Shown here: one piece after another, positions 10,525-61,262 of the stretch
Position numbering within the stretch: the first letter of the stretch is position 1
Layout of the letters: each line of letters starts with the position of its first letter
Origin: Bacteroidia bacterium
GTDB taxonomy: Bacteria > Bacteroidota > Bacteroidia > UKL13-3
Direction: 5' to 3'
Assembly: GCA_021740845.1 (NCBI GenBank)
Contig: JAIOYZ010000001.1
Location: 1 to 64,000 of the forward strand
DNA: 64,000 nucleotides
Program-made: the position numbers and the translations under genes
The notes under the pieces: generated by a model
What the model was told of the DNA's origin: nothing
Databases searched by the model: none
The model's input: the letters and a program-made list of their open reading frames with translations, nothing else

Positions 10525-11501
10525 GTTTTAGCAAAAAAATGTAGTTCCTTCTCCCAATTTATTCCAGGTATTTCTTGTTGTAGCTTTTTTATTTTTTCGG
10601 TTTGAACCAAACGAAATTTCTGAAAGGCTTCCGTTTCTGGATGCAATGGTCGGTGCTGCATGGCTTGTGCAATCTCAGCAATTTTTGGAAGAATATCTGC
10701 TGCACCGCTATGAATGCAATGAATAACAAATTGCTCCCAAACATATTGGATGGCTTGTTGTGTTGGATGGGCAAAATCTGCTTCATAAAAACGGTAATCT
10801 CTTAATTCGTCTTGAACCAACTCAAATGCTGGAAAATAGTAATGCTTTGGAAACTCTTGCAACAATTGGTTCAAGGCTAAAAACAATACCGATTTGCTTA
10901 GGTTGTTTTGGTGCAAGCCGTCTCTTAAATACTTAACCGGACTAATACTCCAAATTACCTGAATATGTGGGTTGATGGCTTCAATTTGATGGATGAGTTT
11001 TATGTAATCTTCCACAATTTCTTTTGGTTCAAGCAGTCTTTTATGAAATTGCGTATTGGGTACTTTGTGGCAATTGGCAACTACTTTTTTTAATTCTTTG
11101 TGCTCGTAAACAAATGCAGAACCCCAGGTTATAATTAAGAATTTTGCTTTTTTCAATTGTTCATTAGCACTCGCATGAATGCTATCAATTTCTTGTTTTA
11201 GCTCTAATTCGTTGCTTCCGCTAATTTTTCCATGATGCTGCCAAGAATGCCAAAGCTCTTGGTGAAAAAATAAGGAATTACTCTTTTCAAAATCCTCGGG
11301 ATGCAGGTAGTTTCTGAGGTTTTGCGAAATACTCATAGGATTAAACAAAATGCCAGAGGGATTTATTAATGCATTAAATTTATGTTGAACCAAAAGCTCG
11401 CCAATGTTTTGTGCAAAGCAAGAACCAATGGCCAAAACAGAATCGCTTAGTTGAAGTGTGGAAGGATTGGGTTCAAACTGATAGGTTAATTTAAACTGCA
11501 T
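10521..11501 (-). CDS. GSCFA domain protein
   Basis: This 326-residue protein has the name-giving motif near its N terminus: VLAIGSCFAQNIGELL (residues 23-38). The downstream blocks NPSGILFNPMSI, ITWGSAFVY and IWSISPVKYLRDG belong to the same SGNH/GDSL-like hydrolase superfamily. The Ser in GSCFA and a C-terminal DFAHPTQQA His would be the expected catalytic residues. No signal peptide is seen. Substrate unknown; the family is sometimes linked with polysaccharide modification. GGTTTGAACC (10599-10608) occurs within the coding sequence and encodes VQTEK. Confidence 0.88.
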   Translation of the reverse strand: MQFKLTYQFEPNPSTLQLSDSVLAIGSCFAQNIGELLVQHKFNALINPSGILFNPMSISQNLRNYLHPEDFEKSNSLFFHQELWHSWQHHGKISGSNELELKQEIDSIHASANEQLKKAKFLIITWGSAFVYEHKELKKVVANCHKVPNTQFHKRLLEPKEIVEDYIKLIHQIEAINPHIQVIWSISPVKYLRDGLHQNNLSKSVLFLALNQLLQEFPKHYYFPAFELVQDELRDYRFYEADFAHPTQQAIQYVWEQFVIHCIHSGAADILPKIAEIAQAMQHRPLHPETEAFQKFRLVQTEKIKKLQQEIPGINWEKELHFFAKT

Positions 11502-19182: not shown

Positions 19183-19256
19183 GGCGGGGTAGCTCAGTTG
19201 GTTAGAGCGTAGGATTCATAACCCTAAGGTGGGCAGTTCGATCCTGCTCCCCGCTA
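19183..19256 (+). tRNA. tRNA-Met (anticodon CAT)
   Basis: A 74-nt cloverleaf. The acceptor stem is GGCGGGG/CCCCGCT, with a G-T first pair. The D stem is GCTC/GAGC, the anticodon stem TAGGA/CCCTA with one A-C mismatch, the loop TTCATAA with anticodon CAT, and the T arm GGCAGTTCGATCCTGCT. CCA is not encoded. The first-pair and stem details do not look like an initiator, so elongator Met is likely; a CAT-anticodon Ile2 tRNA cannot be excluded. A strong terminator follows 10 bp later. The 3' half of this gene recurs twice downstream. Confidence 0.9.
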
Positions 19257-19266
19257 CAACAAAGCA

Positions 19267-19307
19267 ACAAGGCTTTTCAGGATTTCTGAGAAGCCTTGTT
19301 TTTTTTG
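19267..19307 (+). terminator. Terminator of tRNA-Met
   Basis: A 14-bp stem, ACAAGGCTTTTCAG (19267-19280) and CTGAGAAGCCTTGT (19286-19299) with one G-U pair, is followed by eight T residues. Near-identical copies recur at about 19526-19567 and 19785-19826 as part of the tandem repeat. Confidence 0.92.
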
Positions 19308-19465
19308 GAGTCATAATTTTATGGCTTCTGGCCTCTGGCTCCTATCAGCTAGTATTGGCTTACCCTTGTTGATTCATCCTACAAATAATTGCTAGAAGCT
19401 AGAGGCCAGAAGCTGGCTGCCCTGATACTTTCTCCAATAATACCAAAGACCAATACCCAAAGACC

Positions 19466-19514
19466 GCATTCATATCCGCCTGAGGCGGAGGGCAGTTCGA
19501 TCCTGCTCCCGATA
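19466..19514 (+). pseudogene. tRNA-Met 3'-half fragment 1 with palindrome
   Basis: GCATTCATA matches the anticodon arm of the upstream tRNA-Met. The following anticodon-stem and variable bases are replaced by the perfect palindrome TCCGCCTGAGGCGGA (19475-19489), and then the T arm and a changed acceptor (CCCGATA) follow. D arm and 5' acceptor are absent, so it cannot fold as a tRNA. Confidence 0.8.
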
Positions 19515-19725
19515 CAATAAAGCAACAAGGCTTTTCAGGATTTCTGAGAAGCCTTGTTTTTTTTGGAGTCATAATTTTATGGCTTCTGGCCTCTGGCTCC
19601 TAGCAGCTAGCCATTTGCTTTAATGTTGTTGGTTCATTCTCCAAATAAATGCCAGAATCTAGAGGCCAGAAGCTGGCTGCCCTGATACTTTCTCCAATAA
19701 TACCAAAGACCAATACCCAAAGACC

Positions 19726-19775
19726 GCATTCATATCCGCCTGAGGCGGAGGGCAGTTCGATCCTGCTCCCCGCTA
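19726..19775 (+). pseudogene. tRNA-Met 3'-half fragment 2 with palindrome
   Basis: Second copy of the truncated tRNA, with the same TCCGCCTGAGGCGGA palindrome (19735-19749). The acceptor end CCCCGCTA is unchanged from the functional gene. The 5' half is absent. Confidence 0.8.
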
Positions 19776-19836
19776 CTATAAAGCAGCAAGGCTTTTCAGG
19801 ATTTCTGAGAAGCCTTGTTTTTTTTGGAGTCATAAT

Positions 19837-20035
19837 TTTATGGCTTCTGGCCTCTGGCTCCTAGCAGCCATTGGCTTACCCTTGTTGATTCTTCCTACAA
19901 ATAATTGCCAGAAGCTAGAGGCCAGAAGCCAGGAGCTGGCTGCCCATATTCATTGATTCTTTCTCCAAATAATTGCCAGAAGCTAGAGGCCATAAGCTAG
20001 TTGCTAGCTGCCCATATTCCTTGATTCTACTTTAT
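19837..20035. repeat. Degenerate CTAGAGGCCAGAAGC repeat tail
   Basis: Continuation of the spacer repeat without tRNA pieces. GCCAGAAGCTAGAGGCCAGA-type words, GAGCTGGCTGCCC and TTGATTCTTTCTCCAAATAATTG recur two to three times. It belongs to the same word family as 1-770 and 59650-59935. No gene is visible from here to 20339. Confidence 0.75.
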
Positions 20036-59531: not shown

Positions 59532-59539
59532 AATGTCTT

Positions 59540-59935
59540 TGGGTATTTGTCGTTGGTCTTTGGTTTGGTCTTTGGTCGTTTGTCATTTGTAGTTGGTCTT
59601 TGGTCATTCGTCGTTGGTCGTTGGTTTTTGGGTCGGTTTGAACCGAAATTAAGAAGCGAGAAACGAGAAACGAGAAACGAGAAGCGAGAAAGAGTCCAGA
59701 ATCCAGAATCCAGAATCCAGCCTGCCCGAAGGAGCTTCAGCGAAGGCGGGAATCCAGAAACCAGACCATAGAACTTAAACGATTAAACGCATAAACGATT
59801 AAACAAAAAAACTTGCCCAAAGATGAAACAACAATCTAAGAGAAACAACAGCCAACAGCCAGCAGCCAGCAGCCAGAGGCAGCAGCCAGCAGCCAACAGC
59901 CAGCAGCCAGCAGCCAGCAGCCAGCAGCCTAAAAA
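59540..59935. repeat. Low-complexity repeat array related to the left end
   Basis: Composed of TTGGTCTTTGGTCGTT-type words, GAAACGAGAAACGAGAAGCGAG runs, CAGAATCCAGAATCCAG, AACGATTAAACGCATAAACG and tandem CAGCCAGCAGCCAGCAGCC. Most are reverse complements of the words at 1-770 (for example CTCTGGATTCTGGACTC and TTTATGCGTTTAA). A GGTTTGAACC copy lies at 59635-59644. No gene. Confidence 0.85.
59721..59751. repeat. GC-rich imperfect palindrome inside repeat array
   Basis: CCTGCCCGAAGGAGCTTCAG followed by CGAAGGCGGGA. The flanks are CAGAATCCAG and AATCCAG, so it looks inserted into the CAGAATC repeat. GC content is far above the surroundings. Related in style to the palindromes inside the tRNA-derived copies. 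Confidence 0.6.
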
Positions 59936-60040
59936 AACATCAATTTACACCCCACCTTCAGTTTCTAGCTCTGTTTGAACCAAGAAAATGCAAGTAAAAA
60001 TGCTTTAAATCAAAGCGATGAATAATTTCAAATAAAAAGT

Positions 60041-60071
60041 TTGGCAAAAAAGTTCAAAAGTCCTTTATTTG
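60041..60071 (+). promoter_or_regulatory. Promoter before the tRNA-Arg region
   Basis: TTG (60041-60043) and TTTATTTG (60064-60071) with a 20-bp gap fit the Bacteroidota TTTG/TAnnTTTG promoter type. It would transcribe the pseudo-tRNA and the intact tRNA-Arg. Confidence 0.6.
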
Positions 60072-60090
60072 CACCTCGATTTTGGGCACT

Positions 60091-60118
60091 TAGCCTCCCG
60101 AAGTATTGGGAGATAAAG
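60091..60118 (+). pseudogene. tRNA D-arm-like fragment
   Basis: The TTAGC-TCCCGAAGTATTGGGA-GATAAAGCC layout resembles the D arm of the pseudo-tRNA-Arg 45 bp downstream, with a decayed copy of its palindrome (60096-60111). No other tRNA parts are present. Confidence 0.5.
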
Positions 60119-60126
60119 CCACAAAT

Positions 60127-60217
60127 GGTCTCTTAGCTTCCCGAAGTTTCGGGAGATAGAGCAACGGTTTTCTAATCCGCTGGCCAGCGGACGAAGGTTC
60201 GAGTCCTACAGGGACAC
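60127..60217 (+). pseudogene. Decayed tRNA-Arg copy with two palindromic inserts
   Basis: Matches the intact tRNA-Arg at 60260 outside two inserts. In the D arm the palindrome TCCCGAAGTTTCGGGA (60139-60154) replaces CAGCTG. After the anticodon loop (TTTCTAA retained) TCCGCTGGCCAGCGGA (60176-60191) replaces the stem and variable bases. The T stem (CCTAC) and the acceptor (AGGGACA) each carry a mismatch, so it is probably nonfunctional. Confidence 0.8.
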
Positions 60218-60259: not shown

Positions 60260-60336
60260 GGTCTCTTAGCTCAGCTGGATAGAGCAACGGTTTTCTAAAC
60301 CGTAGGTCGAAGGTTCGAGTCCTTCAGGGACTACCA
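60260..60336 (+). tRNA. tRNA-Arg (anticodon TCT)
   Basis: Intact cloverleaf with acceptor GGTCTCT/AGGGACT (G-T first pair, one G-U), D stem GCTC/GAGC, anticodon stem ACGGT/ACCGT around TTTCTAA (anticodon TCT), T arm GAAGGTTCGAGTCCTTC. The 3' CCA is encoded (60334-60336). A strong terminator follows 12 bp later. Confidence 0.93.
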
Positions 60337-60572: not shown

Positions 60573-61262
60573 ATGCTTTACGAAAGACAAATAATACTTG
60601 ATAAAATTTTAGGATGTTTAAATGGAAAAGACACTTATGGAATTGGCATTTTACTGAGGGAAACAAGGATTCTTTTAGAATTAGAAGAAAATAAGAACAA
60701 ATATGAAACTTTACGTTTTTATTGTACCTGGTCATTACACAATTCTCTTGATAGAAATCCTTTATTATATGATATTTTGGATAAAATTAATATTGGCTTT
60801 GCATTATTAAATAATAATGAAGTAAATGAAAATGGCAGAAATCATATGTCTGAAGTTATTGACGCACTTCAATTGGAAAGTTTGCAAGATGACTTTGTTA
60901 AACTATTAAACACGTATTTTAAACTAAATAAGTTTTTAATAGAGATTACAAATTATATTATGTCGAATGATTTTTTAATAAAAGTCTTTGAAAATGTAAT
61001 TCATAAAAAAATTTATTATTCTGAAAATGTTGGAGCTAAGTTACTTAATAAAATGAAGTCTACAATTGAAAATACGGTAAAAATAAATGAAATTAGAAGT
61101 TCATTTATTGATGAGAGTATTGAAAATATTGATTTAAGAATAAAGAAATCAAATTCAACTATAGTGCATTCAATTACTATAAGCCAAGTAAGCGAAAGAG
61201 CGGTTACTTTTACATTGACAACTCAAAGTCAAGGGAAAATTATAGGAAATGTATATTTTTAA
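60573..61262 (+). CDS. Hypothetical protein of low-GC island
   Basis: Unrecognised 229-residue protein of high Asn/Ile/Lys content (MLYERQIILDKILGCLNGKD, FENVIHKKIYYSENVGAK). No signal peptide or membrane segment. It stands directly after tRNA-Arg, is much more AT-rich than core genes, and lies next to the rolling-circle replication remnant, so it is probably part of a mobile element. Its C-terminal portion has beta strands (STIVHSITISQVSERAVTFTL). Confidence 0.65.
   Translation: MLYERQIILDKILGCLNGKDTYGIGILLRETRILLELEENKNKYETLRFYCTWSLHNSLDRNPLLYDILDKINIGFALLNNNEVNENGRNHMSEVIDALQLESLQDDFVKLLNTYFKLNKFLIEITNYIMSNDFLIKVFENVIHKKIYYSENVGAKLLNKMKSTIENTVKINEIRSSFIDESIENIDLRIKKSNSTIVHSITISQVSERAVTFTLTTQSQGKIIGNVYF

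What the first reader, a model, noticed from the sequence alone, without database searches (positions are those of the whole stretch)
60127..60217. Two GC-rich palindromes inserted into the arms of a tRNA-Arg copy
TCCCGAAGTTTCGGGA sits in the D arm and TCCGCTGGCCAGCGGA after the anticodon loop, while the flanking tRNA sequence is preserved. Such exact replacement of stem-loop parts by foreign palindromes is unusual. A further decayed D-arm-like copy lies at 60091-60118. It may reflect a small palindromic element that targets tRNA arms, or template switching.
Basis: seen in the sequence. Interest (0 to 1): 0.72.

Follow-up and report, generated by a model that had tools for sequence, protein, structure and literature searches.

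The report
tRNA copies with palindrome-swapped arms
Next to a working tRNA gene lie broken extra copies of it in which pieces of the folded arms have been swapped exactly for small foreign mirror-image sequences, and the same thing is found at tRNA genes of many Bacteroidota and allied bacteria, with no paper found that describes it.

Summary
Upstream of the intact tRNA-Arg(TCT) at 60260-60336 lies a broken copy (60127-60217) with CAGCTG replaced by TCCCGAAGTTTCGGGA and ACCGTAGGT by TCCGCTGGCCAGCGGA; a more decayed copy precedes it. It is one case of a widespread pattern: across 161 tRNA contexts, 125 palindromes have both flanks matching the neighbouring tRNA collinearly (reversed-tRNA control 0), at 15 tRNA species; 58 of 69 stretches of the one species-wide scan are from Bacteroidota. 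Five junction positions hold 86 of the 125. Upstream copies are 5' parts, downstream copies 3' parts. The replaced native segment has complementary end bases in 46 of 46 distinct cases (shifted controls 3-18 of 46), with an exception found later. GIY-YIG nuclease genes lie just downstream of 14 of 58 such tRNAs against 6 of 82 others, in places as tandem tRNA|terminator|GIY|broken-copy units, much like phage SegB amplification. Best model: amplification at tRNA genes driven by GIY-YIG nucleases, with displaced copies disabled by hairpin-for-hairpin swaps. The swap mechanism is inferred; the window itself holds no GIY-YIG gene.

The parts
60260..60336 (+). intact tRNA-Arg (anticodon TCT)
   Evidence: ARAGORN, Rfam RF00005 68.7 bits
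60127..60217 (+). displaced pseudo-copy of tRNA-Arg(TCT) with two arm segments replaced by palindromes
60139..60154 (+). palindrome TCCCGAAGTTTCGGGA replacing D-loop CAGCTG (bases 13-18 of this tRNA)
60176..60191 (+). palindrome TCCGCTGGCCAGCGGA replacing ACCGTAGGT, the 3' strand of the anticodon stem plus variable loop (junction 38|48, anticodon counted as 34-36)
60084..60126 (+). more decayed 5'-part copy (acceptor strand and D arm) with imperfect palindrome TCCCGAAGTATTGGGA at 60096-60111
60040..60078 (+). promoter-like stretch (TTTGGC .. TTTATTTGCACC) that in relative G003 lies directly before the intact tRNA and here lies before the copies
   Evidence: alignment of empty site L050 with the window; promoter label is inference
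19183..19257 (+). second case in the window: intact tRNA-Met with displaced 3' copies downstream
19470..19510 (+). displaced 3' part of tRNA-Met; TCCGCCTGAGGCGGA at 19475-19489 replaces ACCCTAAGGT (junction 37|48)
19730..19770 (+). second displaced 3' part of tRNA-Met; same palindrome at 19735-19749

Best explanation
These are displaced, disabled tRNA copies left by repeated tandem (segmental) amplification at tRNA genes, most likely started by small chromosomal GIY-YIG nucleases in the manner of phage SegB. A cut in or beside the tRNA gene is repaired so that a complete tRNA is re-formed and an old 5' part (with its leader) is left upstream, or an old 3' part (with its terminator) downstream, with or without a GIY-YIG gene in between. 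In the displaced copies, short segments with complementary ends in the D, anticodon or T arm have been swapped for longer palindromes, so the copy can no longer fold or be recognised as a tRNA gene. Shown: the copies, their polarity, the recurring junctions, the complementary-end rule, empty and filled sites, and the excess of GIY-YIG genes. Inferred: that the nuclease makes the arrays, that the swap happens at hairpin bases, and that it protects the real gene or the copy from further cutting or recombination.
For: Own genome: interrupted tRNA copies lie beside Arg-TCT, Arg-CCG, Arg-CCT (x3), Ser-GCT (x3), Ala, His (x2-3), Asp, Phe and Met. 125 junctions against 0 in the control; junctions 12|19, 11|19, 27|35, 26|44 and 38|48 make 86 of the 125. 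Polarity: anticodon/T class hits 33/1 upstream against 10/11 downstream, Fisher p=2.8e-5. Empty and filled sites in the same genus: L050 against the window and L042 against L033. A TAnnTTTG-like box within 40 nt of the first copy in 16 of 56 contexts, of the real tRNA in 3 of 56, never both; 37 of 56, the window among them, show neither. GIY-YIG ORF ending within 700 bp downstream: 14 of 58 against 6 of 82, p=0.005. Tandem units tRNA|terminator|GIY|palindromised 3' copy in L160; similar layouts in L112, L104, L101 and L199. Five such ORFs tested are PF01541; the L160 protein is nearest in the PDB to two UPF0213 proteins (E 3e-6, 8e-6), then weakly to Slx1 (E 0.04, 0.07). Complementary-end rule 46 of 46. 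SegB precedent: cuts within tRNA genes and tandem tRNA-segB units with shared bases between the tRNA 5' end and the segB 3' end (PMC13096335, abstract and passages).
Against: 44 of 58 such tRNAs have no GIY-YIG gene within 700 bp downstream; only 3 of 30 fetched GIY-YIG loci hold a tRNA within about 1.5 kb, so most GIY-YIG genes are not tRNA-linked; the window has none (0 of 405 frames). The association test is not corrected for phylogeny. No cutting was measured. Nothing in this model explains why TCCCG..CGGGA or TCCGC..GCGGA letters recur. The window copy keeps its T-loop GTTCGAGTC, close to what I infer to be the SegB motif, so protection from such cutting is not general. The complementary-end rule has one clear exception (L290, lost AGTCC), another by eye in G286 (lost GTT), and L048 may be one. 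Tandem copies can be near-identical to each other, which does not fit a simple anti-recombination role; the longest exact run touching a palindrome reaches 146 nt.
Confidence: 0.4

Rival explanations
1. The palindromes are a small mobile element of their own (REP-, RPE- or SDR-like), moved by an unidentified transposase that picks short dyads; tRNA copies are simply places that tolerate it.
For: TCC..GGA ends in 107 of 125; TCCCGAAGNNTCGGGA occurs in 39 of 196 genomes (own and relatives), several with about ten places, and most of the 29 contexts read by eye, one locus per genome, show no tRNA-like flanks; dyad-ended targets fit a symmetric enzyme.
Against: No common target letters at the junctions beyond C..G ends in 12 of 21 classes; in the own genome half of the 16 places are in tRNA copies, though tRNA flanks of 700 bp are about 1% of it (my arithmetic), and the other 8 are no more than the reversed control's 8; 90 distinct palindromes; no linked transposase was seen, but RAYT genes were not searched for.
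Confidence: 0.3
2. Selection on RNA: upstream copies are transcribed leader elements, and hairpins replace arms so that the copy cannot mispair with, or be processed as, the real tRNA, or so that it acts as a decoy.
For: Upstream copies lie between a promoter-like box and the real tRNA; one strand of a stem is often what is lost; a double compensatory change TCCGC..GCGGA to TCCAC..GTGGA in L027; a His copy (L209) folds better than its shuffles (z -2.70, 1 of 200 as good), though by pairing its two palindromes with each other.
Against: The window copy folds no better than its shuffles (z 0.15, 107 of 200 as good); acceptor strands, the most likely to mispair, are often kept (by eye); presence varies among species of one genus.
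Confidence: 0.13
3. Local mutation: template switching or quasi-palindrome correction turns weak native dyads into perfect palindromes in unneeded copies.
For: The lost segments have complementary ends, as quasi-palindromes do; in L031 (genome G056) one copy reads ACCGCTAGTTAGCGGA, which looks intermediate (by eye).
Against: Arm letters mostly do not come from the tRNA and recur in unrelated tRNAs and phyla; first and last letters of palindrome and lost segment differ in 119 of 125.
Confidence: 0.1
4. Ordinary tRNA fragments left by tyrosine-integrase elements (phages, ICEs) inserted in tRNA genes.
For: Such fragments are common (PMC9897764, passages read); the polarity of 5' and 3' parts is of that sort.
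Confidence: 0.04
5. Chance or assembly artefact.
For: Many loci come from metagenome assemblies.
Against: Control count 0 against 125; cultured isolates such as Robiginitalea aestuariiviva, Crocinitomix algicola, Belliella calami, Salinimicrobium catena and Marinilabilia rubra show it on contigs of 81 kb to 1.5 Mb.
Confidence: 0.01

Closest known systems
Phage T4/T6 SegB, free-standing GIY-YIG homing endonuclease of tRNA regions
   Same: GIY-YIG gene beside tRNAs; cuts within tRNA genes; tandem tRNA plus nuclease units, with shared bases between tRNA 5' end and nuclease 3' end (PMC13096335, abstract and passages; T4 table in PMC2988022, passages)
   Different: Here in bacterial chromosomes, short UPF0213-like proteins, displaced copies disabled by palindromes at recurring arm positions, and most arrays have no nuclease gene within 700 bp
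Rickettsia palindromic elements (RPE) and GTAG/CGTC REPs
   Same: Short palindromic repeats that can lie inside genes (PMC3733652, passages)
   Different: No GTAG tag, replacement rather than insertion, very many different sequences, tied to tRNA copies; further facts on RPE are recalled
Repetitive hairpin elements / double hairpin elements of mitochondria
   Same: Hairpin elements, also found in rRNA genes (PMC2800124, passages)
   Different: In the passages seen, not described as exact swaps of tRNA arm segments in tandem tRNA copies
tRNA gene fragments from integrating elements
   Same: Partial tRNA copies left beside intact tRNAs (PMC9897764, passages)
   Different: No integrase seen at the window locus, palindromes in the arms, short tandem units

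Membership tests
SegB-like GIY-YIG tRNA amplification | GIY-YIG catalytic domain encoded in the unit | tested here: inconclusive
   met in a subset: PF01541 in 5 of 5 array ORFs tested, GIY ORF at 14 of 58 tRNAs with such copies; not met in the window
SegB-like GIY-YIG tRNA amplification | Tandem tRNA plus nuclease repeat units | tested here: inconclusive
   met in L160, L112 and L101; not met at the window locus
SegB-like GIY-YIG tRNA amplification | Nuclease cuts tRNA genes and is needed for amplification | not testable with these tools
   no cutting assay possible
GTAG REP / REPtron | Terminal GTAG next to the palindrome | tested here: not met
   flanks are tRNA sequence; palindrome ends are TCC..GGA in 107 of 125
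GTAG REP / REPtron | RAYT transposase in the genome | not tested
   no search for Y1 transposases was run
Tyrosine-integrase tRNA island | Integrase gene near the tRNA | tested here: not met
   six window ORFs at 57.4-63.8 kb: four with Pfam matches, none an integrase; two without any match
Functional tRNA | Cloverleaf recognised by tRNA finders | tested here: not met
   ARAGORN and Rfam report only 60260-60336 and 19183-19257 in the window
Phage-borne element | Same D-loop pattern in viral contigs beside tRNAs | tested here: not met
   one pattern only: 8 viral hits, all one conserved region without tRNA

The most novel reading that the evidence does not exclude
A previously undescribed DNA process in Bacteroidota and allied bacteria swaps one dyad for another: it picks short segments with complementary ends in tRNA-gene copies and replaces each with a longer palindrome at hairpin-base boundaries, working together with Slx1-like GIY-YIG nucleases that amplify tRNA genes in tandem.
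Probability: 0.33. Interest if true: 0.92.

Novelty: new variant of a known kind. Interest (0 to 1): 0.8.

Why it matters
It gives a widespread, testable fossil record of what happens at tRNA genes, which are favoured landing sites of mobile DNA. If the model holds, a chromosomal counterpart of SegB amplification exists in bacteria, and there is a way to replace hairpins exactly by other hairpins, which no mechanism known to me predicts. It also matters for annotation: in the own genome about 9 of 30 tRNAs read by eye have hidden disabled copies that the tRNA finders used here skip.

Tried and rejected
Chance or random scatter of palindromes: rejected. Phage carriage: one viral scan gave 8 hits in one conserved region with no tRNA. 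Palindrome inside a sole functional tRNA: L131 looked so, but its genome holds an intact tRNA-Gly(GCC) (L241). Known RNA family: Rfam on 12 loci gave 19 tRNA matches and one 16S end. RNA stability: the window copy is not above shuffles, a His copy is, so RNA structure is left as a rival. Anti-recombination by short homology runs: median run 15 nt but up to 146, and no proper null, so left open. NCBIfam named none of four GIY proteins above its cut-off. The first GIY regular expression was badly written and printed nothing; it was rewritten. Part of the printout (about L114-L126) was cut and not read by eye. In one search, 6 of the 8 GIY-YIG places of the own genome were listed, 2 were not; the window was therefore checked on its own. 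Literature searches; among the listed rows none describes palindrome-swapped tRNA copies, but several searches had more hits than rows shown, and the library holds only open-licence PMC papers.

Full report
What is there. The window holds an intact tRNA-Arg(TCT) at 60260-60336. Before it, at 60127-60217, is a copy that agrees with it except that CAGCTG (its bases 13-18) is replaced by TCCCGAAGTTTCGGGA and ACCGTAGGT (39-47, counting the anticodon as 34-36) by TCCGCTGGCCAGCGGA, with a few changes at the 3' end. A decayed 5' part with an imperfect palindrome lies at about 60084-60126. A second case is in the same window: downstream of tRNA-Met (19183-19257) are two 3' parts with TCCGCCTGAGGCGGA at 19475-19489 and 19735-19749, in place of ACCCTAAGGT, nearly the same stretch as 39-47.

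It is genome-wide. Thirty tRNA loci of the own genome (of 32 Rfam hits) were read without regard to palindromes. By BLAST and by eye, interrupted or partial copies with palindromes lie beside 9 tRNAs: Arg-TCT, Arg-CCG, Arg-CCT, Ser-GCT, Ala, His, Asp, Phe and Met. A finder that asks for exact 9-base matches on both sides within 600 bp gave 11 gaps at 7 of 30 distinct tRNAs, all with hairpin arms of 5 or more; 2 of the 11 are native anticodon arms of neighbouring tRNAs, leaving 9 gaps at 5 tRNAs. A finder with real tRNAs masked gave inserts at 5 of 30 tRNAs here and 4 of 31 in G003, another species of the genus; 4 of 8 and 4 of 9 of those inserts are perfect palindromes from end to end, the rest off-register or unrelated. 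So the share depends on the finder.

It is widespread. Of 196 genomes (own and relatives), 29 matched the window copy region at E <= 1e-8, but many of these matches are just the real tRNA; palindromised Arg copies, some decayed, were read by eye in 11 of them: G010, G043, G063, G062, G053, G056, G007, G009, G061, G015 and G017. A scan of one genome for each of 84,980 species with a D-arm pattern gave 69 stretches: 58 Bacteroidota by their titles, 5 Neomarinimicrobiota (Marinimicrobia), 1 Calditrichaceae, 1 Ignavibacteria, 1 Peregrinibacteria bin, 1 unnamed bacterium and 2 Chloroflexota, which look like coding DNA. 49 of the 69 pass the junction test; of the other 20, several are at contig ends or repeat loci already held (and by eye). 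The looser pattern hit 4 of 395 genomes, reversed control 0. A pattern that fixes only the tRNA flanks and lets any 12-26 bases stand in the D loop found 8 places in 7 of 395 genomes; 7 of the 8 inserts are palindromic, one of them imperfectly, and the reversed control gave 0.

Junction statistics. In 161 distinct tRNA contexts, 128 palindromes had both 9-base flanks matching the neighbouring tRNA (one mismatch allowed in each); three were native anticodon arms and were dropped, leaving 125, and the control with reversed tRNA sequence gave 0. There are 90 distinct palindromes, 14-22 bases long, at 15 tRNA species and 24 junction pairs, of which five hold 86 of 125. D-arm counts and TCCCG ends are inflated by the search patterns that brought in most loci. 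Upstream hits are D 68, anticodon 33, T 1; downstream D 2, anticodon 10, T 11 (Fisher on anticodon against T, p=2.8e-5). So upstream copies are 5' parts with leader, downstream copies 3' parts with terminator.

Empty and filled sites. In the same genus, L050 (G003) has the intact tRNA directly after the promoter-like stretch that in the window precedes the copies; the two align over 59 bases. L042 and L033 align over 65 bases, which end at the intact tRNA in L042 and at the broken copy in L033. A TAnnTTTG-like box lies within 40 nt before the first copy in 16 of 56 and before the real tRNA in 3 of 56, never both (sign test p=0.004); 37 of 56, the window among them, show neither. The copies thus seem to sit between promoter and tRNA and should be transcribed, which was not tested.

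The complementary-end rule. The replaced native segment begins and ends with complementary bases in 46 of 46 distinct isotype-junction cases; moving one or both boundaries gives 3-18 of 46. Many of the 46 are not independent (D loops are alike, whole anticodon arms are stems). Collapsed by hand into 22 classes, 21 obey, and without the whole-arm class 20 of 21 (binomial against 0.26, p about 3e-11). The exception, AGTCC in the second unit of L290, came from the later finder, in which G003 gave 2 of 3 and the own genome 4 of 4 obeying; G286 (GTT) is another exception by eye, and L048 may be one. Twelve of the 21 classes are C..G. The I-TevI CNNNG cleavage motif (term seen only in a search listing; details recalled) has the same symmetry but fixed length, so this is a hint only.

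The GIY-YIG link. With a home-made HMM, a GIY-YIG ORF ends within 700 bp downstream of 14 of 58 tRNAs with palindromised copies and 6 of 82 without (p=0.005); with four own-genome loci added by hand, 15 of 60 against 5 of 80 (p=0.002). Loci fetched because of GIY-YIG (L158-L187) and tRNAs with under 600 bp held downstream were left out; phylogeny was not corrected. Two of the 'without' loci with a GIY (L036, L145) do carry a palindromised copy that the strict test missed. Against this, only 3 of 30 GIY-YIG loci fetched hold a tRNA within about 1.5 kb, and the window has no GIY-YIG frame. In L160 the order is tRNA-Met, terminator, GIY, copy with palindromes in the anticodon and T arms, terminator, GIY, copy; L112, L104 and L101 are alike in plan, and in L199 the order is tRNA-Asp, GIY, palindromised 3' copy. 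In L112 the GIY reading frame runs into the broken copy. The proteins are PF01541 (5 of 5); the nearest solved relatives of the L160 protein are two UPF0213 proteins and, weakly, Slx1.

Reading. Phage SegB cuts within tRNA genes and drives tandem tRNA-segB units, with shared bases between the tRNA 5' end and the segB 3' end (PMC13096335, abstract and passages). Some arrays here have the same plan in chromosomes. I infer that the SegB motif RAWTSGAAC is the T-loop sequence read from the other strand. The best model is amplification of this sort followed, or accompanied, by swaps of small dyads for palindromes in the displaced copies. The swap could be done by structure-specific cutting at hairpin bases. 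What it gains, protection from cutting, from recombination or from misfolding, is open. On rechecking I lowered the model's odds slightly (0.42 to 0.40) for the 3-of-30 result and raised the RNA rival (0.12 to 0.13) for the His fold.

Novelty. Ten searches of open PMC papers listed no description. As a membership question it is not a REP (no GTAG), not an integrase island by the six ORFs tested, and only in part SegB-like. I file it as a new variant, with a real chance that the swap process is new in kind.

Noticed in passing
window 19183-20020: tRNA-Met with tandem repeats of about 260 bp downstream; two of them hold a palindromised 3' tRNA part and a terminator copy.
   Followed up: partly
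window 3640-56660, e.g. 10592-10617: Dispersed CGGTTTGAACC palindromes at many places.
   Followed up: no
window 59535-59931 and 90-750: Long low-complexity tandem repeats (GTCTTTGGTCGTT, AGAATCCAG, CAGCAGCCAG), some with inverted partners at the other end of the window.
   Followed up: no
window 60573-61262: 229-aa ORF right after the tRNA without any Pfam match at E 0.01.
   Followed up: no
L132 1-1499: Two palindromised tRNA-Ile copies between the end of a 16S rRNA gene and tRNA-Ile, i.e. inside an rRNA operon.
   Followed up: no
L144 4726: A palindromised tRNA-Lys copy in a Peregrinibacteria bin, far from Bacteroidota; possibly a binning error.
   Followed up: no
L212 downstream of tRNA-Glu: Inverted and direct tRNA 3' parts frame larger repeats in the own genome.
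   Followed up: no
L107 3762-4000: T arm of a tRNA-Gly copy holds three palindromes in a row with different outer arms (by eye).
   Followed up: no
L173, L172: TCCCGATAGCTATCGGGA-type palindromes also lie near GIY-YIG genes of the other subtype, without a tRNA.
   Followed up: no
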